Translations under genes and position numbers: made by a program
DNA from: Apostichopus japonicus
Lineage: Eukaryota; Echinodermata; Holothuroidea; Aspidochirotida; Stichopodidae
Direction: 5' to 3'
Assembly (NCBI RefSeq): GCF_037975245.1
Contig: NC_092576.1
Span: 26,611,611-26,675,610 of the forward strand
DNA: 64,000 nucleotides
Notes under the pieces: model-generated
The model's input: the letters and a program-made list of their open reading frames with translations, nothing else
Told to the model about the DNA's origin: nothing
Database searches by the model: none
Shown here: piece by piece, positions 17,793 to 58,012 of the stretch
Layout of the letters: every line of letters starts with the position of its first letter
How positions within the stretch are numbered: the first letter of the stretch is position 1

Positions 17793-17844
17793 ATTAATAT
17801 AATCCCTTAACAATAAAGTGTCATACACCGTCGTTATTACTACT
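17793..17844 (+). repeat. right terminal inverted repeat of a second element
   Basis: CCCTTAACAATAAAG...ATACACCGTCGTTATTACTACT matches the right TIR of the 10.6 kb element with a few substitutions. It is preceded by the same subterminal repeats. The matching left end was not found upstream, so this element is truncated or rearranged. Confidence 0.65.
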
Positions 17845-19800: not shown

Positions 19801-20639
19801 ATGGTGAAGCAGGGAGGAGGGTGTTTGGCTGGGGTTGGAGAGGGGAAAGTTTCAGCTCAAGTGGAAGAAAAGTCATGCCAAAGCAAACAGATTTGCCTTT
19901 GATCATCACATTCCATAGAACGAATGGGGAATGTGAAGGGGTTACTGATAAAGAAATGATTTCAGTTATCCCTACGCTTCCTCCTGTCCATGAAATATCA
20001 TCTACCGCCTCTATACAACAACACAGAAACCAGGATATCATAGGAAGGATCAACGAAGGAACTTCGACTTCTGGACTCTCTGCACAAGCGCCACCAGGAC
20101 AAAGCGGAGAAGGGCCGTAAACGATTTGATCTTATAGAAGAAGAAAACATTGACCCTTCATCTGAACATGATACCAGTCAAGACACTTTCAGGAACATGT
20201 GAATCTTATAGTATTGATAAAATTACTTTCAAATATGATGACAAAGTCGGAATTCATAATTTCTAATATATCACCTGACAATAAGGTTGGCATTGTTATT
20301 ACATCAGAACAAATAGATACACTTATTGCTTTACTGTTGATGTGTATAAAATTATGGGCGAACAAAATTCAGAAGGCTTTACAGTCCAATCGGGAATTAT
20401 ATCTAGACAGTGAACTTAGGCTGAATTTGATCCATTTCAAAATGCCTTCAGGTGGGGGTTGGATCTAACCGGTATAAAATTACAGGTGGGCAATCAATTG
20501 ATAACTGTTTTCATTGTAGCAAAGCAATGAATCATTTCCATTCCACGGGAACGATGAACTTTGTTGCGCTCGAGCTGTAGTGACAACCCTTCTTATATAA
20601 GACAAAAATCACCCTAAGTTAAGTCAAATTAAAAAGGGT
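19801..20639. other. no clear gene
   Basis: Transposase-flanking and AT-rich sequence. A TATA-like CTTATATAAG lies near 20590. No supported coding region. Confidence 0.4.
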
Positions 20640-21687
20640 AGAAGGATACAGCCCAAATTAGCAAATGAATTACATGATAATGCGAGGGTACCCCCAACGA
20701 AAGTGCGGTATTCCAGCACTGCAAACTTTTCAAAATTATTTTGTTCGCCGTTATCAAATAATTGTTTTAAGCGGTGTAGTACAGGACATGAACGGTTAAT
20801 TAAAAAATTAATTATAGCGCACAATTTCAGGGGTTTGACGGGTATTTTATTTTGGATTTTCTTTACAAATTATGGTTGACGCCGAACATCGTTACCACGG
20901 GAAGGTGAAAAGCTTCGGTTTATTGATTCTCTTAATTTTCTGCAAATTACTTTAGCTGCTCTCCCCAAGTCGTTTGGGATCGATGACTTCAGGAAAGGCA
21001 ATTTTCCACATGTATTTAATACCGTGTCAAATCAAAACTATGTGGGCCCTCTGTCCGATGCCTCCTTTTACATTCCAAATGCTATGTTGGTTAAAAAGAG
21101 AAAGGAGTTTAAGAGTTGGTATGAAAGTAAACTTCAGAAGAATGACTTTCAAATGGAAGTAGCGTCATACTGTATCAGCGATGTTGATATTTTGAGACTT
21201 TCTTGTTCATGTTTTCGTGAATTATTGATGGAAATAACAAAGAAAGACATGCGAGGCGTTGACCCTTTGCATGACGATAGCCTCCGCATGTAATTTAGTG
21301 TTTAGACGTAATATTTTTAAGCCTAATACAATTGCAGAAAAGCTAAATTGTTATGCATCGCGTCAGTGGATATGGTACGAACGTGTTACGAGGAACATAT
21401 ACATACAAGACGCTCAGAATGAAGGGGAAAGGAAAATTGGGCCGTACTGGATAAATGGGTTTGCAACGGAGGGTAATGATACTTTTTAATTTCAAGGGGT
21501 GCTGGTGGAACGGATCTCCGACGTGCTATGACGAGGACACAATACATCCGTATCATCAAATTACAACTGGGGAGCTCTACAACTGGACTGTAAAGAAAAA
21601 GCAATTCGTTCGTGACGTTAATGCGGGTCATATTTACATAGATATGTGGGGGCACCAGCGGAATCAATTAAAACTAGAGCTATCCCC
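20640..21687 (+). pseudogene. Polinton-type PolB, exonuclease part (left of the insertion)
   Basis: A decayed protein-primed type B DNA polymerase. IIAHNFRGFDGYFILDFLY (exonuclease II region) lies at about 20813-20870. After a frame change near 20908 comes RFIDSLNFLQITLAALPKSF, then VEVASYCISDVDILRLSC-like exonuclease III (YCxSDVDILR) and FRELLMEITKKDM to about 21290. A second frame change gives TIASACNLVFRRNIF, IQDAQNEGERKIGPYWINGF, GCWWNGSPTCY and GHIYIDMWGH, typical of this PolB family just before the palm. The frame is interrupted at 21687 by the 10.6 kb element and resumes at 32307. Confidence 0.8.
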
Positions 21688-21728
21688 AGTAGTAGTAACG
21701 ACGGTGTAGGACAATCTATTGTTAAGGG
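21688..21728 (+). repeat. left terminal inverted repeat
   Basis: 41 bp starting AGTAGTAGTAACGACGG and ending TTGTTAAGGG; the exact inverse of 32260-32300. The AT-rich sequence after it is also loosely similar between the two ends. Confidence 0.9.
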
Positions 21729-21849
21729 ATTATATTAATATTAATATTGTTATAAATATTTGTATGATTTTTTTTATGAATATTTTTATGAATATTTTTC
21801 ATATTTTTTATTGTTATTATTATCATTATGTTTTAGCAAAATAAATTAT

Positions 21850-22083
21850 ATGTCATATGACAGAACGCCCTCTATTAACAAAGTTTTAGGCTTAAGTGCG
21901 CCCTCCTTTTCCAAAGTTTTGAGAGAGAAACGTGACACGTTGGCAACAAGTTCTGTCATGATTGGCATTAACAGCGGGGGGGGGGGGGGGGTGTGTGTTA
22001 GTGATTGAAAAGGTATGTTAATGAGGAGCTTAAGTAGAGTGCTCTTATGTAAGATGATAAGAATGATGGCGAAGCGGAAGTAA
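21850..22083 (+). pseudogene. small basic terminal ORF (MSYDRT family), broken at a G run
   Basis: ATG at 21850, then SINKVLGLSAPSF and REKRDTLATSSVMIGINSG, then a 16-base G run at about 21976-21991 where the frame is lost. Coding-like sequence continues after it (basic, Met-rich, ...CKMIRMMAKRK) to a stop at 22083. A second copy without the G run, but with other damage, lies at 40332-40532 minus, again next to an element end. The position beside the TIR and conservation in two elements argue for a real gene. The basic C-terminus could bind nucleic acid, but that is speculation. Confidence 0.4.
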
Positions 22084-22341
22084 AGAAAGCTTTAGAAATG
22101 ATTGCGACGGATTATTGTAAAAAACCAATAATCACTTTGAAAATGGGATGAGGGTATTTTTCACTATACGGGTTTATTTGTGTCATAAGGAGACAAACGG
22201 ACGTAGCTTAATTATGAAAGCAATGATTAAGGGCGGATAAGGGTACCCACGTGTTTAACCGTATGTTTTTGATGGAAAACGCTTACAGGCGTTTCATTGT
22301 TCTAAGATTAAAAACAGAGATATTGGTGTGTTGTAAAACCC

Positions 22342-22349
22342 TTTATAAG
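22342..22349 (+). promoter_or_regulatory. TATA-like box upstream of the PC4-like gene
   Basis: TTTATAAG about 190 bp before the ATG at 22534, with an initiator-like CCTCAGTCAA about 45 bp downstream. Suggestive only. Confidence 0.3.
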
Positions 22350-22533
22350 ATCACTCTGCATCGAAGCATCTCACTGTCCACATCGTTCCTCAGTCAATCT
22401 CAACTCTTTGGACTAAGAATATTTTTGCTGTTCAACTATCTGAAAAGTTCGGACTTGAATATTTTTGCTCTTGAACTATCTGAAAAGTTTGGACTTTCAA
22501 AACGCGGTGCCTTTGGACTTGAACATTATTAAA

Positions 22534-22930
22534 ATGGCCAAATTGGGAAAAGATGTAACGCCACCAACACCTCAAGACGAGGAAACCCGTCTACAATGGC
22601 CGAGCCCTACTAAGCGGTCGTCGCAGTCACCTCCACCAACGGTATCGCCATTGACAGAGGGTTACGACGAAGCGGGTTGCAAACCAACGCATGTGAGTAA
22701 ACCTGCTCTGTTTCATCTCGGAGGCAATACGCATCTACAGTTACATACATTTCGTGGCGAGGCTTACGTTACCATAAGACAATTTTATAGCAAGGATGGA
22801 TGTGATGCGTTACTACCGGGAAATCAGGGCTTACTTTATCCGTCAAACAGTGGGTGAACTAAAAATTTTAATGACGCATATTAGTAATGCGTTGCAGGAA
22901 GTTGAAAAGAACCCTTTGCCTTCACGTTAA
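22534..22930 (+). pseudogene. single-domain PC4-like protein, frameshifted near the C-terminus
   Basis: ATG at 22534 starts a Pro/Ser-rich leader (TPPTPQDEETRLQWPSPTK, PPPTVSPLTEGYDEAG). A PC4/p15-like domain follows: FHLGGNTHLQLHTF, EAYVTIRQFYSKDG, LLPGNQG. The expected continuation LSVKQW and ELKILMTHISNALQEV is present but spread over two other frames, ending at 22930. PC4-like domains bind ssDNA and assist transcription or replication. It is the best functional clue for the 10.6 kb element. The leader is recognisable again at 40644-40830 beside the other element end, and the domain at 3.2-3.7 kb. Confidence 0.55.
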
Positions 22931-23024
22931 GTATATGAAAAACATCATTTACAACCTGAGAATGAAACTAACACGCTTAGAAAACCGTTCTACGTGAACA
23001 CACACGATACAGTGAGTTTGGAAA

Positions 23025-23399
23025 ATGTTATCCGACAAAGAAAGGTATAAATATAACGGGGGAGCAGTGGTAAGTATTGTGCCTGACATTGACGAAAAGC
23101 TCGCAGCGATGATTGCTGATTGTAACAGGATTTAGTATTCATATGTTGTTCGTACTATGTTTCAGGATGAAACTGAAGTGATCTGGGTACTGGATTCTGA
23201 TGAGGAGGCAGAACTGGAGACCCCGATCGGCAATGTACGACAACCGGATGTAGAGGCACCCAAAGTGTCTAGGCACATCAAGAGGCGAAATCCCAGATGT
23301 CAACCAAAGAGGCTGTTTGAACAAGGCATCGTCGTAGATGAGGTCCAGACAACGACAACCGAACACGAAAAGACGTTGCAACGTTTAGCAAGAATGTGA
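23025..23399 (+). CDS. possible two-exon small gene, acidic then basic
   Basis: Exon 1 (23025-23069) encodes MLSDKERYKYNGGAV and ends at an excellent donor (GTG|GTAAGT). Exon 2 starts after TATGTTTCAG at 23166 and runs to 23399 (77 residues): an acidic DETEVIWVLDSDEEAELE, then a basic SRHIKRRNPRCQPKRLF, then a polar end. Both junctions are phase 0, giving about 92 residues. No family recognised. It lies between the PC4-like gene and the array on the same strand. If splicing is wrong, exon 2 alone remains an open frame. Confidence 0.4.
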
Positions 23400-23595
23400 T
23401 TTGCCAAGAGCTTTGGCATACCATAAAACAAAAATGCGATGATTTGTGTTACGGATGTAGGGTGGACCCCCCCCCCCCCCACCTAATGGTCGGCTCGTGA
23501 ACAAAGAGCACTTGCATTCTTTTTCTTACCTTTTTCCTTTAAAAAGAGTTTTCATCTTATTCAAAACTTCCAAATTCTACTTTTCCATAACCATA

Positions 23596-23938
23596 ATGGC
23601 AAGTGCTAGGCGTTTATACCAGGCGTAGGGCGAAGAGTTAAATTCTCTTTAGGGAGGAGTTTGAAAAGATCGTGCAAAGCGAAACCTTCGTTATGCTTTG
23701 CAACAGAGCTAAGTTTAGGATTTTCCTAAAAGAAGTGACGGTCAGAGTCAGAAACAGTGGGACCAGAGATAAGAGTATATGGCTGAAAGATTCGGTGCAC
23801 GACGGTCAGTACAAAACTCCGGCGAGTGAAACGGAAAACAGGGCAAGTCAGGTTAGATTTTTACTGACGTACCTGTTATTGGCCCAATTCGACTGGTTTG
23901 CTGTGCATAATGTGCAGATGGTACCATCGTGCTTTTAA
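23596..23938 (+). pseudogene. array gene copy 1, broken
   Basis: The first unit. Tyr11 is replaced by a TAG stop, and two bases are missing shortly after (GAGTTAAATTC instead of the array consensus). The rest is A-type, ending VPSCF. As an edge copy it may have escaped homogenisation. Confidence 0.8.
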
Positions 23939-24209
23939 ATTAGCTGCTCATCGAACGTGAAACAAAGAGTACCGGTAATCTCTAAAACTTCTCCTAACTT
24001 GAACCTTTTTTTTTTTAAATCTGCGTACCCCCCCCCCCCCACCCAAATGGTCGGCTAAAAGATAATCACCGGCTTCACTCTGGAGCTTTAGACTCGTGAA
24101 GAAAGAGCACCTGCATTCTTTTTCTTACCTTTTTCCTTTAAAAAGAGTTTATCTTATTCAAAACTTCATTCGTTCTTGAACTTCCAAATTTTACTTTTCC
24201 ATAACCATA

Positions 24210-24554
24210 ATGGCAAGTGCTAGGCGTTTATACCAGGCGTACGGCGAAGAGTTGAAAATTCTCTTTAAGGAGGAGTTTGAAAAGATCGTTCAAAGCGAAA
24301 CTTTCGTTATGCTTTGCAACAGAGCTAAGTTTAGGATTTTCCTAAAAGAAGTGACGGTCAGAGTCAGAAACAGTGGGACCAGAGATAAGAGTATATGGCT
24401 GAAAGATTCGGTGCACGACGGTCAGTACAAAACTCCGGCGAGTGAAACGGAAAACAGGGCAAGTCAGGTTAGATTTTTACTGACGTACCTGTTATTGGCC
24501 CAATTCGACTGGTTTGCTGTGCATAATGTGCAGATGGTACCAGCGTGCTTTTAA
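24210..24554 (+). CDS. array gene copy 2, intact, A-type (reference copy)
   Basis: 114 residues, unrecognised. The start ATAATGG has A at -3 and G at +4. Layout: basic N-terminus MASARRLYQAYGEELK, an acidic/amphipathic helix-like stretch to about residue 30, TFVMLCNRAKFRIFLKEV (31-48), a polar middle with IWLKDSVHDGQYKTP (62-76), then a hydrophobic aromatic segment VRFLLTYLLLAQFDWFAV (87-104) and a short end VPACF. No signal peptide is evident. Residues 87-104 could pack as a helix or associate with membrane. A-type marks: E47 V48 I62 D66 G71 L90. A longer homologue lies at 39.78-40.17 kb. Function unknown. Confidence 0.7.
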   Translation: MASARRLYQAYGEELKILFKEEFEKIVQSETFVMLCNRAKFRIFLKEVTVRVRNSGTRDKSIWLKDSVHDGQYKTPASETENRASQVRFLLTYLLLAQFDWFAVHNVQMVPACF

Positions 24555-24797
24555 ATTAGCTCCTCATCGAACGTCAAACAAAGAGTACCGGTAATCTCTA
24601 AACTTCTCCTAACTTGAACCTTGTTTTTTATTAAGCTGCGTAACCCCCCCCCCCCCTCACCCAAATGGTCGGCTAAAAGATAATCACCGGCTTCACTCTG
24701 GAGCTTTAGACTCGTGAAGAAAGAGCACCTGCATTCTTTTTCTTACCTTTTTCCTTTAAAAAGTGTTTATCTCATTCAAAACTTTTCCATAACCATA

Positions 24798-25147
24798 ATG
24801 GCAAGTGCTAGGCGTTTATACCAGGCGTACGGCGAAGAGTTGAAAATTCTCTTTAAGGAGGAGTTTGAAAAGATCGTGCAAAGCGAAACTTTCGTTATGC
24901 TTTGCAACAGAGCTAAGTTTAGGATTTTCCTAAAAGAAGTGACGGTCAGAGTCAGAAACAGTGGGACCAGAGATAAAGAGTATATGGCTGAAAGATTCGG
25001 TGCACGACGGTCAGTACAAAACTCCGGCGAGTGAAACGGAAAACAGGGAGGGCAAGTCAGGTTAGATTTTTACTGACGTACCTGTTATTGGCCCAATTCG
25101 ACTGGTTTGCTGTGCATAATGTGCAGATGGTACCATCGTGCTTTTAA
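24798..25147 (+). pseudogene. array gene copy 3, frameshifted
   Basis: A-type. One extra A after TRDK shifts the frame, ending the ORF at 25034. A GAGG insertion (CAGGGAGGGCAAG), shared with copy 9, lies further on. The leader lacks about 28 bp (TTCATTCGTTCTTGAACTTCC region), as in copy 11. Confidence 0.8.
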
Positions 25148-25419
25148 ATTAGCTGCTCATCGAACGTGAAACAAAGAGTACCGGTAATCTCTAAAACTTC
25201 TCCTAACTTGAACCTTTTTTTTTTAATCTGCGTACCACCCCCCCCCCCTCACCCAAATGGTCGGCTAAAAGATAATCACCGGCTTCACTCTGGAGCTTTA
25301 GACTCGTGAAGAAAGAGCACCTGCATTCTTTTTCTTACCTTTTTCCTTTAAAAAGAGTTTATCTTATTCAAAACTTCATTCGTTCTTGAACTTCCAAATT
25401 TTACTTTTCCATAACCATA

Positions 25420-25764
25420 ATGGCAAGTGCTAGGCGTTTATACCAGGCGTACGGCGAAGAGTTGAAAATTCTCTTTAAGGAGGAGTTTGAAAAGATCGTG
25501 CAAAGCGAAACTTTCGTTATGCTTTGCAACAGAGCTAAGTTTAGGATTTTCCTAAAAGAAGTGACGGTCAGAGTCAGAAACAGTGGGACCAGAGATAAGA
25601 GTATATGGCTAAAAGATTCGGTGCACGACGGTCAGTACAAAACTCCGGCGAGTGAAACGGAAAACAGGGCAAGTCAGGTTAGATTTTTACTGACGTACCT
25701 GTTATTGGCCCAATTCGACTGGTTTGCTGTGCATAATGTGCAGATGGTACCAGCGTGCTTTTAA
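25420..25764 (+). CDS. array gene copy 4, intact, A-type
   Basis: Same protein as copy 2, ending VPACF. Full-length leader. Confidence 0.7.
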   Translation: MASARRLYQAYGEELKILFKEEFEKIVQSETFVMLCNRAKFRIFLKEVTVRVRNSGTRDKSIWLKDSVHDGQYKTPASETENRASQVRFLLTYLLLAQFDWFAVHNVQMVPACF

Positions 25765-26034
25765 ATTAGCTCCTCATCGAACGTCAAACAAAGAGTACCG
25801 GTAATCTCTAAACTTCTCCTAACTTGAACCTTGTTTTTTTTTAAGCTGCGTAACCCCCCCCCCCCACCCAAATGGTCGGCTAAAAGATAATCACCGGCTT
25901 CACTCTGGAGCTTTAGACTCGTGAAGAAAGAGCACCTGCATTCTTTTTCTTACCTTTTTCCTTTAAAAAGAGTTTATCTCATTCAAAACTTCATTCGTTC
26001 TTGAACTTCCAAATTCTACTTTTCCATAACCATA

Positions 26035-26379
26035 ATGGCAAGTGCTAGGCGTTTATACCAGGCGTACGGCGAAGAGTTGAAAATTCTCTTTAAGGAGGAG
26101 TTTGAAAAGATCGTTCAAAGCGAAACTTTCGTTATGCTTTGCAACAGAGCTAAGTTTAGGATTTTCCTAAAAAAAGGGACGGTCAGAGTCAGAAACAGTG
26201 GGACCAGAGATAAGAGTTTATGGCTGAAAAATTCGGTGCACGACGTTCAGTACAAAACTCCGGCGAGTGAAACGGAAAACAGGGCAAGTCAGGTTAGATT
26301 TGTACTGACGTACCTGTTATTGGCCCAATTCGACTGGTTTGCTGTGCATAATGTGCAGATGGTACCATCGTGCTTTTAA
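26035..26379 (+). CDS. array gene copy 5, intact, B-type
   Basis: B-type marks: K47 G48 (FLKKGTV), L62, N66, V71 and V90 (RFVLTY), ending VPSCF. The K47/N66 changes raise the net charge relative to A-type. Copy 7 has the same protein. Confidence 0.7.
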   Translation: MASARRLYQAYGEELKILFKEEFEKIVQSETFVMLCNRAKFRIFLKKGTVRVRNSGTRDKSLWLKNSVHDVQYKTPASETENRASQVRFVLTYLLLAQFDWFAVHNVQMVPSCF

Positions 26380-26648
26380 ATTAGCTGCTCATCGAACGTG
26401 AAACAAAGAGTACCGGTAATCTCTAAAACTTCTCCTAACTTGAACCTTTTTTTTTTAAATCTGCGTAACCCCCCCCCCCACCCAAATGGTCGGCTAAAAG
26501 ATAATCACCGGCTTCACTCTGGAGCTTTAGACTCGTGAAGAAAGAGCACCTGCATTCTTTTTCTTACCTTTTTCCTTTAAAAAGAGTTTATCTTATTCAA
26601 AACTTCATTCGTTCTTGAACTTCCAAATTTTACTTTTCCATAACCATA

Positions 26649-26993
26649 ATGGCAAGTGCTAGGCGTTTATACCAGGCGTACGGCGAAGAGTTGAAAATTC
26701 TCTTTAAGGAGGAGTTTGAAAAGATCGTGCAAAGCGAAACTTTCGTTATGCTTTGCAACAGAGCTAAGTTTAGGATTTTCCTAAAAGAAGTGACGGTCAG
26801 AGTCAGAAACAGTGGGACCAGAGATAAGAGTATATGGCTGAAAGATTCGGTGCACGACGGTCAGTACAAAACTCCGGCGAGTGAAACGGAAAACAGGGCA
26901 AGTCAGGTTAGATTTTTACTGACGTACCTGTTATTGGCCCAATTCGACTGGTTTGCTGTGCATAATGTGCAGATGGTACCATCGTGCTTTTAA
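26649..26993 (+). CDS. array gene copy 6, intact, A-type
   Basis: A-type protein ending VPSCF. With copy 5 it forms a B-A pair that is repeated by copies 7-8. Confidence 0.7.
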   Translation: MASARRLYQAYGEELKILFKEEFEKIVQSETFVMLCNRAKFRIFLKEVTVRVRNSGTRDKSIWLKDSVHDGQYKTPASETENRASQVRFLLTYLLLAQFDWFAVHNVQMVPSCF

Positions 26994-27264
26994 ATTAGCT
27001 GCTCATCGAACGTGAAACAAAGAGTACCGGTAATCTCTAAAACTTCTCCTAACTTGAACCTTTTTTTTTTAATCTGCGTACCACCCCCCCCCCTCACCCA
27101 AATGGTCGGCTAAAAGATAATCACCGGCTTCACTCTGGAGCTTTAGACTCGTGAAGAAAGAGCACCTGCATTCTTTTTCTTACCTTTTTCCTTTAAAAAG
27201 AGTTTATCTTATTCAAAACTTCATTCGTTCTTGAACTTCCAAATTTTACTTTTCCATAACCATA

Positions 27265-27609
27265 ATGGCAAGTGCTAGGCGTTTATACCAGGCGTACGGC
27301 GAAGAGTTGAAAATTCTCTTTAAGGAGGAGTTTGAAAAGATCGTGCAAAGCGAAACTTTCGTTATGCTTTGCAACAGAGCTAAGTTTAGGATTTTCCTAA
27401 AAAAAGGGACGGTCAGAGTCAGAAACAGTGGGACCAGAGATAAGAGTTTATGGCTGAAAAATTCGGTGCACGACGTTCAGTACAAAACTCCGGCGAGTGA
27501 AACGGAAAACAGGGCAAGTCAGGTTAGATTTGTACTGACGTACCTGTTATTGGCCCAATTCGACTGGTTTGCTGTGCATAATGTGCAGATGGTACCATCG
27601 TGCTTTTAA
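27265..27609 (+). CDS. array gene copy 7, intact, B-type
   Basis: Protein identical to copy 5. At the DNA level it differs at least at the IVQ codons (GTGCAA here, GTTCAA in copy 5), so the pair is not a perfect assembly duplicate. Confidence 0.7.
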   Translation: MASARRLYQAYGEELKILFKEEFEKIVQSETFVMLCNRAKFRIFLKKGTVRVRNSGTRDKSLWLKNSVHDVQYKTPASETENRASQVRFVLTYLLLAQFDWFAVHNVQMVPSCF

Positions 27610-27880
27610 ATTAGCTGCTCATCGAACGTGAAACAAAGAGTACCGGTAATCTCTAAAACTTCTCCTAACTTGAACCTTTTTTTTTTTAAATCTGCGTACC
27701 CCCCCCCCCCCACCCAAATGGTCGGCTAAAAGATAATCACCGGCTTCACTCTGGAGCTTTAGACTCGTGAAGAAAGAGCACCTGCATTCTTTTTCTTACC
27801 TTTTTCCTTTAAAAAGAGTTTATCTTATTCAAAACTTCATTCGTTCTTGAACTTCCAAATTTTACTTTTCCATAACCATA

Positions 27881-28225
27881 ATGGCAAGTGCTAGGCGTTT
27901 ATACCAGGCGTACGGCGAAGAGTTGAAAATTCTCTTTAAGGAGGAGTTTGAAAAGATCGTGCAAAGCGAAACTTTCGTTATGCTTTGCAACAGAGCTAAG
28001 TTTAGGATTTTCCTAAAAGAAGTGACGGTCAGAGTCAGAAACAGTGGGACCAGAGATAAGAGTATATGGCTGAAAGATTCGGTGCACGACGGTCAGTACA
28101 AAACTCCGGCGAGTGAAACGGAAAACAGGGCAAGTCAGGTTAGATTTTTACTGACGTACCTGTTATTGGCCCAATTCGACTGGTTTGCTGTGCATAATGT
28201 GCAGATGGTACCATCGTGCTTTTAA
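27881..28225 (+). CDS. array gene copy 8, intact, A-type
   Basis: Protein identical to copy 6 (A-type, VPSCF). Confidence 0.7.
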   Translation: MASARRLYQAYGEELKILFKEEFEKIVQSETFVMLCNRAKFRIFLKEVTVRVRNSGTRDKSIWLKDSVHDGQYKTPASETENRASQVRFLLTYLLLAQFDWFAVHNVQMVPSCF

Positions 28226-28497
28226 ATTAGCTGCTCATCGAACGTCAAACAAAGAGTACCGGTAATCTCTAAACTTCTCCTAACTTGAACCTTTTTTTTT
28301 TAATCTGCGTACCACCCCCCCCCCCCTCACCCAAATGGTCGGCTAAAAGATAATCACCGGCTTCACTCTGGAGCTTTAGACTCGTGAAGAAAGAGCACCT
28401 GCATTCTTTTTCTTACCTTTTTCCTTTAAAAAGAGTTTATCTTATTCAAAACTTCATTCGTTCTTGAACTTCCAAATTTTACTTTTCCATAACCATA

Positions 28498-28846
28498 ATG
28501 GCAAGTGCTAGGCGTTTATACCAGGCGTACGGCGAAGAGTTGAAAATTCTCTTTAAGGAGGAGTTTGAAAAGATCGTGCAAAGCGAAACTTTCGTTATGC
28601 TTTGCAACAGAGCTAAGTTTAGGATTTTCCTAAAAGAAGTGACGGTCAGAGTCAGAAACAGTGGGACCAGAGATAAGAGTATATGGCTAAAAGATTCGGT
28701 GCACGACGGTCAGTACAAAACTCCGGCGAGTGAAACGGAAAACAGGGAGGGCAAGTCAGGTTAGATTTTTACTGACGTACCTGTTATTGGCCCAATTCGA
28801 CTGGTTTGCTGTGCATAATGTGCAGATGGTACCAGCGTGCTTTTAA
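28498..28846 (+). pseudogene. array gene copy 9, truncated by a 4 bp insertion
   Basis: A-type to residue 83, then the GAGG insertion shared with copy 3 shifts the frame and the ORF ends at 28764 with ...NREGKSG (88 residues). The rest of the gene is present out of frame. Sharing the same insertion shows sequence exchange or a common origin of copies 3 and 9. Confidence 0.8.
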
Positions 28847-29116
28847 ATTAGCTCCTCATCGAACGTCAAACAAAGAGTACCGGTAATCTCTAAACTTCTC
28901 CTAACTTGAACCTTGTTTTTTTTTAAGCTGCGTAACCCCCCCCCCCCACCCAAATGGTCGGCTAAAAGATAATCACCGGCTTCACTCTGGAGCTTTAGAC
29001 TCGTGAAGAAAGAGCACCTGCATTCTTTTTCTTACCTTTTTCCTTTAAAAAGAGTTTATCTTATTCAAAACTTCATTCGTTCTTGAACTTCCAAATTTTA
29101 CTTTTCCATAACCATA

Positions 29117-29461
29117 ATGGCAAGTGCTAGGCGTTTATACCAGGCGTACGGCGAAGAGTTGAAAATTCTCTTTAAGGAGGAGTTTGAAAAGATCGTGCAA
29201 AGCGAAACTTTCGTTATGCTTTGCAACAGAGCTAAGTTTAGGATTTTCCTAAAAAAAGGGACGGTCAGAGTCAGAAACAGTGGGACCAGAGATAAGAGTT
29301 TATGGCTGAAAGATTCGGTGCACGACGTTCAGTACAAAACTCCGGCGAGTGAAACGGAAAACAGGGCAAGTCAGGTTAGATTTTTGCTGACGTACCTGTT
29401 ATTGGCCCAATTCGACTGGTTTGCTGTGCATAATGTGCAGATGGTACCAGCGTGCTTTTAA
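29117..29461 (+). CDS. array gene copy 10, intact, mostly B-type
   Basis: K47 G48, L62 and V71 as in B-type, but D66 and L90 as in A-type, ending VPACF. A mosaic consistent with gene conversion or unequal crossover. Confidence 0.7.
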   Translation: MASARRLYQAYGEELKILFKEEFEKIVQSETFVMLCNRAKFRIFLKKGTVRVRNSGTRDKSLWLKDSVHDVQYKTPASETENRASQVRFLLTYLLLAQFDWFAVHNVQMVPACF

Positions 29462-29703
29462 ATTAGCTCCTCATCGAACGTGAAACAAAGAGTACCGGTA
29501 ATCTCTAAACTTCTCCTAACTTGAACCTTGTTTTTTTTTTAAGCTGCGTAACCCCCCCCCCCCCACCCAAATGGTCGGCTAAAAGATAATCACCGGCTTC
29601 ACTCTGGAGCTTTAGACTCGTGAAGAAAGAGCACCTGCATTCTTTTTCTTACCTTTTTCCTTTAAAAAGAGTTTATCTCATTCAAAACTTTTCCATAACC
29701 ATA

Positions 29704-30048
29704 ATGGCAAGTGCTAGGCGTTTATACCAGGCGTACGGCGAAGAGTTGAAAATTCTCTTTAAGGAGGAGTTTGAAAAGATCGTGCAAAGCGAAACTTTCG
29801 TTATGCTTTGCAACAGAGCTAAGTTTAGGATTTTCCTAAAAGAAGTGACGGTCAGAGTCAGAAACAGTGGGACCAGAGATAAGAGTATATGGCTGAAAGA
29901 TTCGGTGCACGACGGTCAGTACAAAACTCCGGCGAGTGAAACGGAAAACAGGGCAAGTCAGGTTAGATTTTTACTGACGTACCTGTTATTGGCCCAATTC
30001 GACTGGTTTGCTGTGCATAATGTGCAGATGGTACCAGCGTGCTTTTAA
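29704..30048 (+). CDS. array gene copy 11, intact, A-type
   Basis: A-type, VPACF, with the short leader. The frame is open further upstream because of the shorter leader (29620), but the ATG at 29704 matches all other copies and has the same strong start context. Confidence 0.7.
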   Translation: MASARRLYQAYGEELKILFKEEFEKIVQSETFVMLCNRAKFRIFLKEVTVRVRNSGTRDKSIWLKDSVHDGQYKTPASETENRASQVRFLLTYLLLAQFDWFAVHNVQMVPACF

Positions 30049-30317
30049 ATTAGCTGCTCATCGAACGTGAAACAAAGAGTACCGGTAATCTCTAAAACTT
30101 CTCCTAACTTGAACCTTTTTTTTTTTAAATCTGCGTACCCCCCCCCCCCCCCAAATGGTCGGCTAAAAGATAATCACCGGCTTCACTCTGGAGCTTTAGA
30201 CTCGTGAAGAAAGAGCACCTGCATTCTTTTTCTTACCTTTTTCCTTTAAAAAGAGTTTATCTTATTCAAAACTTCATTCGTTCTTGAACTTCCAAATTTT
30301 ACTTTTCCATAACCATA

Positions 30318-30662
30318 ATGGCAAGTGCTAGGCGTTTATACCAGGCGTACGGCGAAGAGTTGAAAATTCTCTTTAAGGAGGAGTTTGAAAAGATCGTGCA
30401 AAGCGAAACTTTCGTTATGCTTTGCAACAGAGCTAAGTTTAGGATTTTCCTAAAAGAAGTGACGGTCAGAGTCAGAAACAGTGGGACCAGAGATAAGAGT
30501 ATATGGCTGAAAGATTCGGTGCACGACGGTCAGTACAAAACTCCGGCGAGTGAAACGGAAAACAGGGCTAGTCAGGTTAGATTTTTACTGACGTACCTGT
30601 TATTGGCCCAATTCGACTGGTTTGCTGTGCATAATGTGCAGATGGTACCATCGTGCTTTTAA
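30318..30662 (+). CDS. array gene copy 12, intact, A-type
   Basis: A-type, ending VPSCF, with one silent change (GCTAGT for GCAAGT) near residue 84. Confidence 0.7.
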   Translation: MASARRLYQAYGEELKILFKEEFEKIVQSETFVMLCNRAKFRIFLKEVTVRVRNSGTRDKSIWLKDSVHDGQYKTPASETENRASQVRFLLTYLLLAQFDWFAVHNVQMVPSCF

Positions 30663-30935
30663 ATTAGCTGCTCATCGAACGTCAAACAAAGAGTACCGGT
30701 AATCTCTAAAACTTCTCCTAACTTGAACCTTTTTTTTTAATCTGCGTACCACCCCCCCCCCCCCTCACCCAAATGGTCGGCTAAAAGATAATCACCGGCT
30801 TCACTCTGGAGCTTTAGACTCGTGAAGAAAGAGCACCTGCATTCTTTTTCTTACCTTTTTCCTTTAAAAAGAGTTTATCTTATTCAAAACTTCATTCGTT
30901 CTTGAACTTCCAAATTTTACTTTTCCATAACCATA

Positions 30936-31280
30936 ATGGCAAGTGCTAGGCGTTTATACCAGGCGTACGGCGAAGAGTTGAAAATTCTCTTTAAGGAGGA
31001 GTTTGAAAAGATCGTGCAAAGCGAAACTTTCGTTATGCTTTGCAACAGAGCTAAGTTTAGGATTTTCCTAAAAGAAGTGACGGTCAGAGTCAGAAACAGT
31101 GGGACCAGAGATAAGAGTTTATGGCTGAAAAATTCGGTGCACGACGTTCAGTACAAAACTCCGGCGAGTGAAACGGAAAACAGGGCAAGTCAGGTTAGAT
31201 TTTTGCTGACGTACCTGTTATTGGCCCAATTCGACTGGTTTGCTGTGCATAATGTGCAGATGGTACCAGCGTGCTTTTAA
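30936..31280 (+). CDS. array gene copy 13, intact, A/B hybrid
   Basis: E47 V48 (A) followed by L62, N66 and V71 (B), L90 (A), ending VPACF. A clear recombinant between the two sequence types. Confidence 0.7.
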   Translation: MASARRLYQAYGEELKILFKEEFEKIVQSETFVMLCNRAKFRIFLKEVTVRVRNSGTRDKSLWLKNSVHDVQYKTPASETENRASQVRFLLTYLLLAQFDWFAVHNVQMVPACF

Positions 31281-31513
31281 ATTAGCTCCTCATCGAACGT
31301 GAAACAAAGAGTACCGGTAATCTCTAAACTTCTCCTAACTTGAACCTTGTTTTTTTTTAAGCTGCGTAACCCCCCCCCCCCCCACCCAAATGGTCGGCTA
31401 AAAGATAATCACCGGCTTCACTCTGGAGCTTTAGACTCGTGAAGAAAGAGCACCTGCATTCTTTTTCTTACCTTTTTCCTTTAAAAAGAGTTTAAAACTT
31501 TTCCATAACCATA

Positions 31514-31858
31514 ATGGCAAGTGCTAGGCGTTTATACCAGGCGTACGGCGAAGAGTTGAAAATTCTCTTTAAGGAGGAGTTTGAAAAGATCGTTCAAAGC
31601 GAAACTTTCGTTATGCTTTGCAACAGAGCTAAGTTTAGGATTTTCCTAAAAAAAGGGACGGTCAGAGTCAGAAACAGTGGGACCAGAGATAAGAGTATAT
31701 GGCTGAAAGATTCGGTGTTCGACGTTCAGTACAAAACTCCGGCGAGTGAAACGGAAAACAGGGCAAGTCAGGTTAGATTTTTGCTGACGTACCTGTTATT
31801 GGCCCAATTCGACTGGTTTGCTGTGCATAATGTGCAGATGGTACCAGCGTGCTTTTAA
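31514..31858 (+). CDS. array gene copy 14 (last), intact, hybrid
   Basis: K47 G48 (B), I62 and D66 (A), V71 (B), plus a private change H69F (SVFDVQYK), ending VPACF. It has the shortest leader (AAAGAGTTTAAAACTTTTCC). About 35 bp after its stop the array sequence switches into the older 3' end described next. Confidence 0.7.
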   Translation: MASARRLYQAYGEELKILFKEEFEKIVQSETFVMLCNRAKFRIFLKKGTVRVRNSGTRDKSIWLKDSVFDVQYKTPASETENRASQVRFLLTYLLLAQFDWFAVHNVQMVPACF

Positions 31859-31895
31859 ATTAGCTCCTCATCGAACGTCAAACAAAGAGTACCGG

Positions 31896-31990
31896 TTCGA
31901 GCAGGAGTTGGCCATCATCGATTGGTAGGACAGATTGATCCGTCTTCCTTAAACGTGCATTGTCTTTCTCTTCATTAATTTAGGCATTTA
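31896..31990 (+). pseudogene. 3' end of the older, longer array-gene form
   Basis: After GAGTACCGG the sequence becomes TTCGAGCAGGAGTTGGCC, encoding FEQELAIIDW and a stop, followed by a 3' flank. This matches the 3' end of the homologues at 39727 and 40137 (VEFEQELANIDW), including the sequence after the stop. The array apparently grew inside or before an older single gene whose last codons remain here. Confidence 0.65.
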
Positions 31991-32099
31991 TTAATTAATT
32001 TTTTTGTTCTCGATAGTTATTTATTGATGTATAATATTTATTCTTACTTAGTCTCTCCATATGGAACAATTACCTATATAGTGAAAATACCCGGCCTCG

Positions 32100-32259
32100 T
32101 TAAAAAACTTAGAAACTTAGTGTGGTGAAAAGTTAAAGCTACGGCATGTCATGTTTGGGGTTCATGATTCTGTGAACGTATCCCCTCACGACTTTAAAAA
32201 TAGATCAATAACATTAGAAAATAAATAAATAAAATTCATAAAAAAAAATCATAAAATCA
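32100..32259 (+). repeat. subterminal repeat at the right end
   Basis: One unit of the repeat found three times at 17440-17770 (AACTTAGTGTGGTGAAAAGT, CTACGGCATGTCATG), followed by A/T-rich sequence leading to the TIR. Confidence 0.7.
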
Positions 32260-32300
32260 CCCTTAACAATAGATTGTCCTACACCGTCGTTACTACTACT
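32260..32300 (+). repeat. right terminal inverted repeat
   Basis: 41 bp, the inverse of 21688-21728. It is followed by GTCCCC, which pairs with ATCCCC before the left end as a 6 bp target duplication with one mismatch. Confidence 0.9.
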
Positions 32301-32889
32301 GTCCCCGATATGAAAATTTGCATTGGACCTCGAGCCATTGGATCAACGAGAAGCATTTTTCGGGGGAAGAACCAATGGAGTGAAATTACTGCATGAAGTG
32401 CAAGGGGGTGAACAAATCAAGTATGTCGATTTTTGTACTCTGCATCCGTATGTAAAGAAGTGTTGCTCCTATCCTTCATGTAAACTAGTGTTGCTCCTAT
32501 TCTATGTATCAGACAAAGTGTTGACTGATGATTTATCACATGATGTCTCAGTACTATGGATTAGTGCAGTGTTCCCAATCAAAATACATAAGAAACTTAT
32601 GTTTCGCCTTTGTTTAAGTTGTGTTTCAAGTTAACGTCAAACCCCTTGTACACATTCTGATACAGAAAGAGCACTCACTGGTACATGGGTAACGCTTGAA
32701 GTTCAGAAAGCAGTTGCAAACGTTGTATGGCGTTCGAAAACAGGGCGCAACATGATAAAGAAAAGAAAACGGGGGGTTTATTCACGGAATACATGAAGAC
32801 GAGTTTAAAAGTCAAACAGGAGGCATCGGGTTGGCCTTCATGGTGTGTCACTGCAGACGACGGAGTCAAGTACATTGCAGATTCATAAC
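32301..32889 (+). pseudogene. Polinton-type PolB, palm motif A part (right of the insertion)
   Basis: Continues the PolB frame of 20640-21687. EPLDQREAFFGGRTNGVKL and then IKYVDFCTLHPYVKK are the AFFGGRTN block and palm motif A (DxxSLYP, here DFCTLHP). FPIKIHKKLMFRLCLSC, TPCTHSDTERALTGTW and, after a frame change near 32740, VKQEASGWPSWC follow. In-frame stops at 32311 and 32632 show decay. Motifs B and C (including DTDS) are missing because the sequence changes at 32889 to the leader of a W-family gene. Confidence 0.8.
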
Positions 32890-34319: not shown

Positions 34320-34510
34320 CGCGAGAGAGTGGTGGCATTTCGAGAGCCACAAGGGGGAACATGGTTCGATTGGGGTCCGTTTTGTACCTTGGAGTGCAGC
34401 CCGTGTAGAACATGGCTTGTATATCCGAGGTAAAGTACAACAATGGGTAGATGATTATTGTGACCGTTTTATCGAATTGGGAGACATCAATCGAGGACGA
34501 ACAATTACTT
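34320..34510 (+). pseudogene. W-family gene, C-terminal piece
   Basis: Broken frames still show VVAFRE and DNA matching the 38.28-38.52 kb copy (GGAGTGCAGCCCGTGTAGAA, AAGTACAACAATGG). It ends in a sequence (GACATCAATCGAGGACGAAC) that also ends the fragment at 35042-35135. Confidence 0.5.
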
Positions 34511-34719
34511 CTGGAGGTTCTGGGAAGAACGGGGCGTCTTGAAAGAGCACGCGTTCAGAAGGAAGCTTTCCTCCAACATTAGGTAGGTTTAGGTAGGTTC
34601 CATTAGGTAGGTTACGTAGGTTCCACATTTATTTATATAAACATTTTATTGCTAGCTGCAACATATTTTCCCATGGGGGAAGTTTCCAACGACATCCTTT
34701 CTTATCTTTTTTTTTAACA

Positions 34720-35045
34720 AGGGCAATTCGTGAACAAGAAACCACCTCGGAGAAACCCCAGGCACTACTCGCATCCCCCAGTAGTGGAACCGTTTGAGGT
34801 GACCATATCACCACCATCGTTATAACCACCAACAACTTCCCGACCTGTAATTCCAAAGCTAGTGATAGAGACCAATGACCTTCGATGTAGGTATGTATTT
34901 GTTTTTAAAACCTAATCTTATTGTAATGTTATTCGTTATTGTTATTATTGTTGCACAGATCGTTTGTGAAAAAGAGGGGTTTCAGAATGAATTTATTTCT
35001 CGCCAAGCAATGCGAAACCACGTCAAGACAGTGCATGTAACAACA
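34720..35045 (+). pseudogene. PolB N-terminal exon, decayed copy 2
   Basis: A degenerate Ser/Pro-rich leader, then CEKEGFQNEFISRQAMRNHV and KTVHVT, the counterpart of the first zinc finger at about 460-530. It then jumps into a W-family fragment (35042-35115). Confidence 0.55.
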
Positions 35046-35135
35046 TGGGTTGTATATCCGAGGTAAAGTACAACAATGGGTAGATGATTATTGTGACCGT
35101 TTTATCGAATTGGGAGACATCAATCGAGGACGAAC
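35042..35135 (+). pseudogene. W-family C-terminal fragment
   Basis: DNA nearly identical to 34405-34500 (GTATATCCGAGGTAAAGTAC ... TCGAATTGGGAGACATCAAT). The protein frame would read as the GxVQQWxDDYCDRF segment. Truncated on both sides. Confidence 0.5.
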
Positions 35136-35460
35136 AATTACTTCTGGAGGATCTGGCAAGCATGGTGCAGAAAAAACTTTCACAAGTTCTGGGAAAAGAA
35201 AGAGTGGCCGGGCAACTCACCAGACTTGAACCCAATTGAAAAACTTTGGGCGATCTTGAAAGGTTTATGAGACCCCATACTGCACCACCAGAACCCAACT
35301 TGAGGAACGTGTGAAGAGGTGTTGGGCGTTCCATCAAGCCATCAATCTAGAGGGCGCTTGTCAACAGCTACTGGGTGAGGCAAGTGTGGAAGGTATTCGA
35401 AAAGGATGGGGATACAAATTTTGGAAGGAAGGACAACACATGGCGCAAAAAGGTAAGCCA
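35136..35460 (+). pseudogene. Tc1/mariner transposase C-terminal fragment
   Basis: Contains FHKFWEKKEWPGNSPDLNPI followed by EKLWAILK. NSPDLNPIEKLW is the conserved end of the DDE_3 domain of Tc1/mariner transposases, which includes the last catalytic acidic residue. After a frame shift, PHTAPPEPNLRNV and GEASVEGIRKGWGYKFW follow, perhaps the C-terminus. No TIRs located. Confidence 0.6.
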
Positions 35461-35591
35461 TATTAACTCCATTTCTCTATGTGCTACCACCAAATTAAGT
35501 AGAATACAATAGAGAGTTGTTCATCACAATACAACTAACGTGCGTACTCTGTACACATAGACGAGCACAAACAACAACAAAAAATAAGAAA

Positions 35592-35925
35592 ATGGCAAAC
35601 TTCCAGGAGGAATTTGGAAATTTCTTAAAGGAGCTAAAGAAAGACACAAAGGTAGTAGCCTTTAGAGAGGCATAATTGTTGCACCGTTGTGCGAGTTTTA
35701 AAGATGGAACTCGAGGGGGAGTACGGTTCGGTTGGGGTCGGGTTTGATACCGGTCTCAGACCGTACAACTTTACACCGTGGAGTGGCGCTCACGTTGAGC
35801 ACGGCATACACATTAGAAAAACAGTTCAGCGCTGGCTAGATGAGTACTGTGCGCTCCATTATAGTTATCTGGACGAACTAAATCTCTGGATGGATATCCA
35901 GTTTGATGTTTATTTTACGTATTAG
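35592..35925 (+). pseudogene. W-family small protein, nearly complete, one frameshift
   Basis: The best copy of the family. ATG at 35592: MANFQEEFGNFLKELKKD, then KVVAFRE. After a frame change near 35670 come VVRVLKMELEGEYGS, YNFTPWSGAHVEHGIHI, VQRWLDEYC and LNLWMDIQFDVYFTY. About 115 residues in total, the size of the array protein, with a similar order of features: N-terminal FxEEFExFL helix, a basic strand-like segment, a tryptophan, a helix with QxWLxxY, and an aromatic C-terminus. Remote homology to the array gene is possible but unproven. Function unknown. Confidence 0.45.
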
Positions 35926-36267
35926 TTGTTGTTTTTTAGTATTTGGATGTGTTTGTGTCACGTGAATCTCGTTTGGATTTATATTTGTTTAGTACTTTGT
36001 TGCTGTGGTTTATATATATATTTTTTTTCTTGGAACAATTTTCTTTGCATTTGTAAATATTGGATAGTTTCTTCTTTACATCGGATGGATTTTGCTGGCT
36101 GCTTTATACACGGGTAAGTACTATGATTTTTACAAAAATACATAAAACTGGTTGTATACGTATACATAAGTTTTAAGTTCTACACACATTAAAATATCCT
36201 TTATTTATAACAATCTTTTATTATGGCCCCTCCAAAAAAAAAAAACAATCGTTAAAATGGCTACATG

Positions 36268-36790: not shown

Positions 36791-36831
<41 letters not shown>

Positions 36832-38224: not shown

Positions 38225-38238
38225 GAAAAAGAAGGAAA

Positions 38239-39544: not shown

Positions 39545-39762
39545 CTGATGGTACCAACGTTAGATGTAAGCTACTTATTGACGTCAAACAAAGAGTAACG
39601 GTAATCCATAAAGCTTCTAACTTGAACCTTTTTTAGGCTGCGTAAGATTTTTACTGCGATACTTCATATTGGCACTATACGACTGATGTACTGTACAGAA
39701 AGAGGCACTCCGCTACTCATTGAATGTGGAGTTCGAGCAGGAGTTGGTCATCATTGATTGGT
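39545..39762 (+). pseudogene. array-gene 3' flank joined to an older array-gene 3' end
   Basis: 39545-39640 matches the array region from GATGGTACCA through GTCAAACAAAGAGTA and CTAACTTGAACCTTTTTTAG. It is followed directly by the coding 3' end (ATTTTTACTGCGATAC ... VEFEQELVIIDW, stop near 39760). This is a mosaic between the array form and the longer form. Confidence 0.6.
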
Positions 39763-39784
39763 AGGACAACTTACCTATATTGAA

Positions 39785-40170
39785 CGGCTTCCAAGAGCTG
39801 GGCGTTTACACCAGGGGTATGCTGACGAGATGAAAGTTCTCTTTAAGGAGGCGTTTGCAAAGATAGTTTGCAAAGCGAAATGTTCGTTATGCTCTGCACC
39901 AGAGCTAAGTTTTGGATTTTCCTAAAAGAGGTCACGGTCGAGGTCAGACACAGTGGGAGCCGAAATAAGAATATGTGGCTGAAAGATTCGGACAACGACG
40001 TCCAGTACAAAACTCCGGCGACTGCAACTGAACACAGGGAAAGTCAGGTAAGATTTTGACTGCGATACCTGATATTGGCACTATACGATTGGTTTGCTGT
40101 ACAGAAAGAGACACTCCGCTACTCATTGAATGTGGAGTTCGAGCAGGAGTTGGCCAACATTGATTGGTAG
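39785..40170 (+). pseudogene. divergent single-copy homologue of the array gene
   Basis: The counterpart of the 114-residue array protein with frame damage near 39868 and a TGA at about 40058. Conserved blocks: AKFWIFLKEVTVEVRHSGS, MWLKDSDNDVQYKTP, LYDWFAVQ. Unlike the array copies it goes on as ETLRYSLNVEFEQELANIDW and a stop. So the array protein seems to have exchanged its last 20 or so residues for the short VPACF end. Confidence 0.65.
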
Positions 40171-40316
40171 GACAACTTACCTATATTGATCGGCTTCCAA
40201 CGGCTCTTTAAGGGCCACCAATTTCCCCAGAAAGAGCAGACTGATCCGACTTCTTAAACATGCAGTCTTATCTTCTTTTCATTAATTTAAGTTATTTAGG
40301 TTTTTTAAGCTACGTA

Positions 40317-40329
40317 CCCCCCCCCCCCA
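40317..40329. repeat. poly-C tract
   Basis: A C run after GCTACGTA, in the same setting as the C runs that follow CTGCGTA in every unit of the array. Confidence 0.8.
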
Positions 40330-40331
40330 GT

Positions 40332-40532
40332 CATCATCCTCCTTATCATCTTACATAAGAGCACTTTACTAAAGCTCGTCATTAAGATGCCCTTTAAACC
40401 ATTGACACAGCCCATTGTTGATGCCAATCATGTCAATTGTTGCCAACGTGTCATGTTTCTATCTCGAAACTTTGGAAAAAGGAGGCGCACTTGGCCTTAG
40501 ACTTTGTCAATAAGCGTTCTGTCATATGACAT
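40332..40532 (-). pseudogene. MSYDRT-family terminal ORF, second copy
   Basis: Reverse-strand homologue of 21850-22083 (ATG at 40532). It matches through the MSYDRT start and the DTLATxxxMIGIN-like part, and continues through the region that is broken by the G run in the other copy. It has at least one frame change. It lies about 105 bp inside an element end, like its homologue. Confidence 0.5.
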
Positions 40533-40589
40533 CATAAATTTATTCTTTATAAAAAAAGATCGATATTAATAATAATATTATATTTTATA

Positions 40590-40639
40590 CTATCATTTGC
40601 ATAACAAAGCAAGAGTCCTAGACCGTCGTCATTACTACT
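40590..40639 (-). repeat. terminal repeat of a third related element
   Basis: AGAGTCCTAGACCGTCGTCATTACTACT resembles the right TIR (TTGTCCTACACCGTCGTTACTACTACT). Because the MSYDRT homologue points away from it, this is the equivalent of the left end in reverse orientation. Confidence 0.55.
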
Positions 40640-40640
40640 G

Positions 40641-51870: not shown

Positions 51871-51872
51871 AA

Positions 51873-58010: not shown

Positions 58011-58012
58011 TT

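What the first reader, a model, noticed from the sequence alone, without database searches (positions are those of the whole stretch)
21688..32300. A 10.6 kb Polinton-like element without its own polymerase or integrase, carrying an amplified cargo gene, inserted in a PolB gene
Seen: 41 bp perfect inverted repeats at both ends, flanks ATCCCC/GTCCCC, and a PolB reading frame that rejoins exactly when the element and one duplication are removed. Known: Polintons have AG...CT ends and 6 bp duplications made by a retroviral-type integrase. Inference: a non-autonomous satellite of Polinton/adintovirus-like elements, carrying a PC4-like protein and a 14-copy gene array, that jumped into a relative's polymerase gene. 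Such a satellite could parasitise, or act against, its helper.
Basis: partly seen in the sequence, partly recalled or inferred. Interest (0 to 1): 0.95.

Follow-up and report, generated by a model that had tools for sequence, protein, structure and literature searches.

The report
Gutted virus-like transposon with amplified gene
In the Japanese sea cucumber genome, a virus-like "Polinton" transposon that sits in the broken polymerase gene of an older relative has lost nearly all its own genes while one small gene at its end was copied 14 times in a row; it looks like a decaying relic whose end gene became a tandem repeat, not a working parasite of other Polintons.

Summary
Perfect 41-bp inverted repeats (21688-21728, 32260-32300) bound a 10,613-bp element. 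Its 6-bp flanks differ at one base. It interrupts a same-family PolB relic between residues 955 and 968. The genome matches the 671.6-Mb Apostichopus japonicus assembly. A TIR search found 8 other facing pairs of this Polinton family; the C23 copy has all eleven genes I could define open.

Comparison shows what happened. The window copy lost about 12.6 kb (integrase, capsid-type genes, protease, ATPase, PolB), with a C-tract at the junction. The small last gene, found once at each of 10 other recognisable loci, is repeated 14 times. All 14 copies carry a replaced C-terminus and 3 of 14 are frame-broken. Array variation shows no clear coding constraint. PC4 is not cargo but the family's normal first gene, broken here.

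The deletion junction was found once in the genome, so there is no sign that this form ever moved. [quoted passage not shown] is supported. "Satellite acting on its helper" is not. Best reading: an internally deleted Polinton relic whose end gene turned into a satellite-like array. A selected "gene accordion" is not excluded: two older relics of this gene are also partly duplicated.

The parts
21682..21687 (.). left target-site copy ATCCCC
21688..21728 (+). left terminal inverted repeat (AGTAGTAG...)
   Evidence: the first 73 bases match 20 other genome places at 85-97%, four of them only over bases 29-73
22459..23070 (+). remnant of PC4-domain gene (first gene of the family), frame-broken; best pieces match residues 20-137, 145-190, 206-232 of the open 256-aa protein
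   Evidence: PF02229 E 2.9e-6
23157..23473 (+). second gene of the family, in two frames and cut after about residue 106 of 189 by the internal deletion
23467..23480 (+). C-tract at the internal deletion junction (about 12.6 kb missing relative to the C23 relative: integrase to PolB)
23596..31855 (+). tandem array of 14 copies of the family's last gene, unit 578-622 bp; 11 of 14 open (114 aa); end replaced (HNVQMVP[AS]CF in the open copies)
31895..31928 (+). left-over original 3' end of the single-copy gene, after the last array copy
32260..32300 (-). right terminal inverted repeat
32301..32306 (.). right target-site copy GTCCCC (one mismatch to the left copy)
19875..21687 (+). host PolB relic, left part (residues 11-346 and 634-955 of the family PolB, with gaps)
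   Evidence: PF03175 on 20880-21290, E 7.2e-10
32307..32882 (+). host PolB relic, right part (residues 968-1165)
17804..17844 (-). right end of another, older element of the same family (90% TIR identity)
39642..40639 (+). older relic of the same family: one degraded copy of the array gene preceded by a piece of its C-terminal end, and a right TIR ending at 40639

Best explanation
This is one integrated Polinton copy in A. japonicus that has been gutted and partly turned into a tandem repeat. Shown: it has the ends of a resident Polinton family; relative to full-length members it lacks one continuous block from gene 2 to just upstream of the last gene, with the junction at a C-tract; the last gene is tandemly repeated 14 times with a replaced C-terminus; it sits in a same-family PolB pseudogene. 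Inferred: a full-length or already deleted Polinton was integrated at this spot by the family's rve-chromodomain integrase; a deletion using CC/poly-C matches removed 12.6 kb; a microhomology or template-switch joint (TGTGCA repeated around a short filler) made the first tandem copy of the last gene; unequal exchange or gene conversion then raised it to 14 and shuffled the variants. The array behaves like neutral satellite-like DNA. Whether its ORFs are expressed is unknown. There is no evidence that it moved after the deletion.
For: Same TIRs: 21 hits in the genome, which I pair into 9 facing pairs (window plus 8) and 3 singles. Exact 6-bp target duplications at 6 of the 9 pairs; 5 of 6 matching bases in the window and in the two C22 copies, which share flanks and so look like one duplicated insertion. 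C23 relative: PC4, gene 2, rve+chromodomain integrase, protease (Pfam below cut-off), ATPase, PolB and the last gene all open. Element ends match these relatives at about 88-92% nt and skip everything between. Deletion junction: of 44 reported matches only the window's own covers the whole 301-bp query (40 of 41 candidates were scored). Last gene: 14 copies here, one at each of 10 other recognisable loci. C-terminus shared by the 4 open single copies aligned, replaced in the three array copies of the same alignment and in the 11 open ones listed; the three broken copies also match through the array-type end. Array, 13 full units: 14 of 350 coding and 15 of 277 noncoding columns vary; changes against unit 6 are 9 nonsynonymous (one a stop) to 5 synonymous; copies 3 and 9 share a frame-breaking insertion. 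Most alike units are often not neighbours. P0001, an A. japonicus protein on a 368-kb contig and so from another assembly, contains two joined copies with the array-type end.
Against: 11 of 14 array ORFs are still open. pN/pS among the 11 is 0.65, below 1, untested for significance. Gap columns are 7 coding against 51 noncoding, although the latter are mainly homopolymer tracts and one deletion shared by three units. The single-copy gene is under some constraint (dN/dS 0.21-0.70 in 6 pairs). Two older relics of the same gene also carry partial duplications (39642-40167; C16:26600866-26601580), which could mean recurrent benefit rather than chance. Only one haploid assembly was searched and the tool calls its counts lower bounds. 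One search also shows gene-2 copies at C17 (two), C22 (two more), C12 and C16:30.7 Mb that were not followed up; they match one side only.
Confidence: 0.8

Rival explanations
1. One reading: a mobile non-autonomous satellite that uses helper Polinton enzymes and amplified a cargo gene to parasitise or suppress the helper.
For: It has intact TIRs and near-perfect target duplication, and apparent helpers with the same TIR exist in the genome. It sits inside a relative's polymerase gene, and an older right end at 40639 likewise abuts a PC4-gene relic.
Against: Only one copy of the deleted structure was found in the genome. PC4 and gene 2 are broken or cut. The array protein has lost its conserved end. 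The host PolB is a relic (main stretches 57-85% aa identity, one overlapping 35% stretch), so hitting it silenced no visible working polymerase. In 7 outer 1.5-kb flanks of 6 other members, no Polinton gene was found, so insertion into relatives is not a rule.
Confidence: 0.07
2. Gene accordion: the last gene is an accessory (for example host- or helper-antagonist) gene that was amplified under selection, as K3L is in vaccinia virus, before or just after integration.
For: 14 close copies (mean 98.6% in the first 318 nt), 11 open, pN/pS 0.65. Two older same-family relics have partial duplications of the same gene. A second Polinton family has several direct degraded copies of its own small orphan gene at this locus (34351-38537).
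Against: Substitutions show no clear constraint and the C-terminus is replaced in all copies. No Pfam domain above cut-off, no PDB match, and no homologue outside the species in the protein search. Found once at each of the 10 other recognisable loci of its family.
Confidence: 0.1
3. Assembly artefact: the array or the insertion was created by the assembler.
For: Near-identical tandem units are hard to assemble.
Against: The assembly that matches (671.6 Mb, PacBio HiFi, mean read 14.7 kb; PMC10344927 passages) has a mean read longer than the whole element. A protein from another A. japonicus assembly (368-kb contig; that its BSL78 tag belongs to the 2017 assembly is recalled) joins two copies with the array-type end. 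Units carry private differences.
Confidence: 0.03

Closest known systems
Polinton/Maverick elements, including adintovirus-like ones with an rve-chromodomain integrase
   Same: AG...CT terminal repeats, 6-bp target duplication, and full-length relatives in the same genome with integrase (rve plus C-terminal chromodomain), PolB, ATPase and an adenovirus-type protease (Pfam below cut-off). An rve integrase with a C-terminal chromodomain is described for adintoviruses in PMC11071296 (passages seen). The AG...CT and 6-bp rules are recalled.
   Different: The window copy keeps none of these genes; it holds only PC4 and gene-2 remnants plus a 14-fold repeated last gene.
Internally deleted (non-autonomous) DNA transposon copies
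   Same: Both ends kept, one internal block lost at a short match.
   Different: No second copy found, so mobility in trans is not shown; in addition the terminal gene is amplified.
Poxvirus gene arrays (vaccinia K3L copy-number amplification with homogenisation; PMC6115191, abstract and outline seen)
   Same: Tandem array of a small gene in a DNA-virus-like genome, with variants shared between non-neighbouring units.
   Different: Here it is in an integrated relic, the protein is truncated, and no selection is detectable.
Satellite-like tandem repeats born inside transposons (PMC7004042, title and start of abstract seen in a search listing)
   Same: Repeat unit taken from an element's own sequence; array longer than the source gene.
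   Different: The source is a Polinton gene rather than a retrotransposon, and the array was found at one locus only.

Membership tests
Polinton/Maverick | terminal inverted repeats AG...CT | tested here: met
Polinton/Maverick | 6-bp target-site duplication | tested here: inconclusive
   ATCCCC/GTCCCC, 5 of 6; 6 of 6 at six of eight other pairs
Polinton/Maverick | own rve integrase | tested here: not met
   tblastn with the C23 integrase finds none in the element or the window at E 1e-4; present and open in the C23 relative
Polinton/Maverick | own family-B polymerase | tested here: not met
   PolB pieces lie only outside the element, as insertion target
Polinton/Maverick | ATPase, protease, capsid-type genes | tested here: not met
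   none in the element; in C23 the ATPase is above Pfam cut-off, the protease below it; capsid-type genes named only by position and recalled motifs
Non-autonomous satellite family | helper with the same ends in the same genome | tested here: met
   open frames with the same ends; activity not testable
Non-autonomous satellite family | several insertions sharing the same deleted structure | tested here: not met
   junction found at one locus only, one haploid assembly
Poxvirus-type gene accordion | tandem gene array with shuffled variants | tested here: met
Poxvirus-type gene accordion | amplified product is functional and favoured | tested here: inconclusive
   11 of 14 open and pN/pS 0.65, but no clear constraint and conserved end replaced; expression not testable
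Adintovirus | integrase with C-terminal chromodomain (tested on the C23 relative) | tested here: met
   PF00665 E 5e-14, PF00385 E 8e-10
Adintovirus | PolB with N-terminal OTU-like domain | tested here: inconclusive
   Pfam reports no OTU domain at E<=1 for the 1431-aa C23 PolB; no structure-based test was made
Adintovirus | hexon recognisable by BLAST against reference adintoviruses | not tested
   no reference hexon was fetched

The most novel reading that the evidence does not exclude
A gene accordion inside an animal Polinton: the orphan gene at the end of the family is an accessory (antagonist-type) gene that is repeatedly amplified in tandem. It reaches 14 copies here, with partial duplications in two older relics, and a parallel multi-copy small gene of a second Polinton family lies at the same locus.
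Probability: 0.1. Interest if true: 0.7.

Novelty: new variant of a known kind. Interest (0 to 1): 0.37.

Why it matters
It gives a before-and-after series (full-length, PolB-deleted and gutted copies of one Polinton family in one genome) showing how a virus-like transposon decays and how one of its genes seeds a tandem array. It identifies a Polinton family in a farmed echinoderm with open frames in the C23 copy, a PC4-domain gene at one end and an orphan gene at the other for which the protein search found no homologue outside the species. If the orphan gene proved to be amplified under selection, it would be an accordion in a group where the literature searches made here listed none, and would point to an antagonist function that could be tested.

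Tried and rejected
Rejected: satellite family (junction found once); PC4 as cargo (normal family gene); chromodomain self-targeting as a rule (no Polinton genes in 7 outer 1.5-kb flanks of 6 other members, of which the two C22 ones are duplicates; against this, an older end at 40639 abuts a PC4 relic); C-tract as sole cause of amplification (a tract sits upstream of the single-copy gene at C22a, C22b and C3b but not at C23, C17, C3a, C2, C8a, C8b; C21 was not looked at; relic C16:26601 has one and shows a partial duplication; the relic at window 39.6 kb has none but shows a partial duplication).

Led nowhere: IMG/VR scans for the exact TIR, the array protein and the PC4 protein gave no relatives. 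The PolB pieces gave one 28-residue match (L001), no relative and one chance match on a contig that looks bacterial (L002; read by eye). The peptide-motif scan fetched L003-L028, which were not analysed. PDB sequence search of the array protein gave one hit at E 1.6 and of its alignment none. A weak Pfam Acb3 hit of the single-copy protein (E 0.023, below cut-off) and a PADLOC Cas7 hit of the array protein (E 0.041) are taken as chance. AlphaFold model of the array protein: mean pLDDT 40, unusable, so no fold search was run. Rfam: 0 hits in 17000-41000. PHROGs and NCBIfam gave no convincing hits.

Literature: the listings of searches (25 of 40 papers shown; 1 of 1; 0; 13 of 13; 8 of 8; 12 of 13; 1 of 1) show no title or start of abstract that describes a tandem gene array inside a Polinton; beyond that only the passages, abstract and outline named in this report were seen, plus passages of PMC6431247.
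Full report
What is there. The window lies at G000:C16:26611611-26675610 of a 671,581,487-base assembly. The only significant protein matches of the array and PC4 proteins are from Apostichopus japonicus. Assembly size and chromosome lengths (C16 46.04 Mb, C23 18.20 Mb) agree with the HiFi assembly described in PMC10344927 (671.60 Mb; pseudo-chromosomes 18.21-46.02 Mb; passages seen). That it is this assembly is an inference from these numbers. At 21688-32300 an element of 10,613 bp is bounded by 41-bp perfect inverted repeats with Polinton-type AG...CT ends, flanked by ATCCCC and GTCCCC (5 of 6 identical).

The target. Pieces of the left flank (19875-21685) match, with gaps, residues 11-346 and 634-955, and pieces of the right flank (32326-32882) residues 968-1165, of the open 1431-aa PolB of a same-family element on C23. 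Identity of the main stretches is 57-85% (one overlapping stretch 35%). At least residues 375-633 and 1166-1431 gave no match in the window, and the frame is broken repeatedly, also right after the junction. So the element sits inside a polymerase pseudogene of an older relative.

The family. The first 73 bases of the element hit 21 places. I pair these into 9 facing pairs (the window element; C3 27.7 kb; C23 16.3 kb; C22 16.1 and 12.85 kb; C21 16.3 kb; C2 17.8 kb; C8 about 10.0 and 15.6 kb, the last two by partial hits) and 3 singles. Target duplications are exact in six pairs and 5 of 6 in the window and both C22 copies, whose identical flanks point to one insertion later duplicated. The C23 copy reads, from left to right: PC4-domain protein (256 aa), gene 2 (189 aa), integrase with rve and chromodomain (384 aa), proteins of 247, 130 and 439 aa (taken as capsid-type by position and recalled motifs only), adenovirus-type protease (Pfam below cut-off), ATPase, 248 aa, PolB on the other strand, and a last gene of 126 aa. 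C22a and C22b lack PolB residues 146-1360; the C3 copy has its integrase split by about 8 kb. Further gene-2 copies without a recognised TIR pair show up at C17 (two), C22 (two), C12 and C16:30.7 Mb and were not followed up.

What the window element lost and gained. Its left 1.78 kb matches the left end of these relatives (about 88-92% nt) through the PC4 gene and into gene 2. At a C-tract (23467-23480) it switches to the sequence just upstream of the last gene. About 12.6 kb, integrase to PolB, is gone. Of 44 matches to a 301-bp query across the junction, only the window's own covers it whole; the others cover one side or only the short stretch around the C-tract. The PC4 gene is frame-broken and gene 2 is cut.

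The array. The last gene is present 14 times; 11 copies are open at 114 aa. Elsewhere it was found once at each of 10 recognisable loci, and degraded at four further places on C16 and one on C9 (the tool calls such counts lower bounds). The repeat joint lies inside the gene: after TTTGCTGTGCA a filler TAATGTGCA leads into sequence from upstream of the gene, so the open copies end in HNVQMVP[AS]CF instead of the conserved end found in the 4 open single copies aligned; the three broken copies match through the same end. The original gene end survives once, unused, after the last copy (31895-31928). The 13 full units differ by 0-17 bases in about 600; close pairs are often two to five units apart (u3/u6, u5/u7, u4/u9, u10/u13), as expected from unequal exchange or conversion. 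In these 13 units, 14 of 350 coding and 15 of 277 noncoding columns vary (several of the latter in homopolymer tracts); changes against unit 6 are 9 nonsynonymous, one of them a stop, to 5 synonymous; gap columns are 7 coding and 51 noncoding, the latter mainly homopolymer tracts and one deletion shared by three units. pN/pS among the 11 open copies is 0.65, the single-copy genes give dN/dS 0.21-0.70 in 6 pairs; neither was tested for significance. I see no clear constraint on the array beyond what recent copying from a constrained gene would leave.

Mechanism, shown and inferred. Shown: origin from the resident family, one contiguous loss, tandem gain with a truncated product, residence in a same-family relic. 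Inferred: integrase-mediated insertion, deletion by end-joining at CC/poly-C, first duplication by microhomology or template switching, expansion by unequal exchange. The order of insertion, deletion and expansion cannot be told from one haploid assembly. Nothing shows that the deleted form moved.

For and against a more exciting reading. A selected accordion is kept open by three facts: 11 open copies; partial duplications of the same gene in two older relics (window 39642-40167; C16:26600866-26601580); and several direct degraded copies, within 34351-38537, of the small orphan gene of a second Polinton family, which elsewhere (C6, C12, C16) sits beside an ATPase of that kind. Against it stand the replaced C-terminus, the lack of clear constraint, and single copies at the 10 other recognisable loci. 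The protein has no Pfam domain above cut-off, no PDB match and no homologue outside the species in the protein search; its model is unusable (mean pLDDT 40).

Verdict. The satellite and anti-helper parts are not borne out by the genome-wide check.

Noticed in passing
34351-38537: Several degraded direct copies of a small orphan gene; relatives on C6, C12 and C16:26610182 sit beside an ATPase gene, on C6 and C16 within a second Polinton family. Possible parallel amplification.
   Followed up: partly
G000:C16:26604561-26609745, just left of the window (L055): Relic of a second Polinton family (protease, 439-aa-type, 247-aa-type, integrase, 248-aa-type, ATPase; 27-62% aa identity to the C23 family), so this part of C16 holds relics of at least two families.
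   Followed up: partly
40615-40806: Right end of an older same-family relic abuts a PC4-gene relic (40658-40806), possibly a second nested insertion into a relative; its left end was not found.
   Followed up: partly
51162-58718: Two 709-bp repeats, 100% identical, flank long open frames with PNMA-type gag, RT, RNase H and integrase matches: it looks like a very young Ty3-type LTR retrotransposon.
   Followed up: no
59531-61399: Open 622-aa piggyBac-type transposase (DDE_Tnp_1_7) on the minus strand.
   Followed up: no
G000:C3:27259864, C8:14964468, C8:15475026: Three family members share the same target duplication GACATC; the two on C8 may be one duplicated insertion, not checked.
   Followed up: no
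G000:C22:16918037-16930886 and 17223408-17239512: Two copies with the same flanks (segmental duplication) both lack PolB residues 146-1360, an intermediate stage of decay.
   Followed up: partly
G000:C17:21512571 and 21519623, C22:643814 and 1462809, C12:21027071, C16:30706505: Further copies of the family's gene 2 outside the recognised TIR pairs, so the family is larger than the 9 pairs.
   Followed up: no
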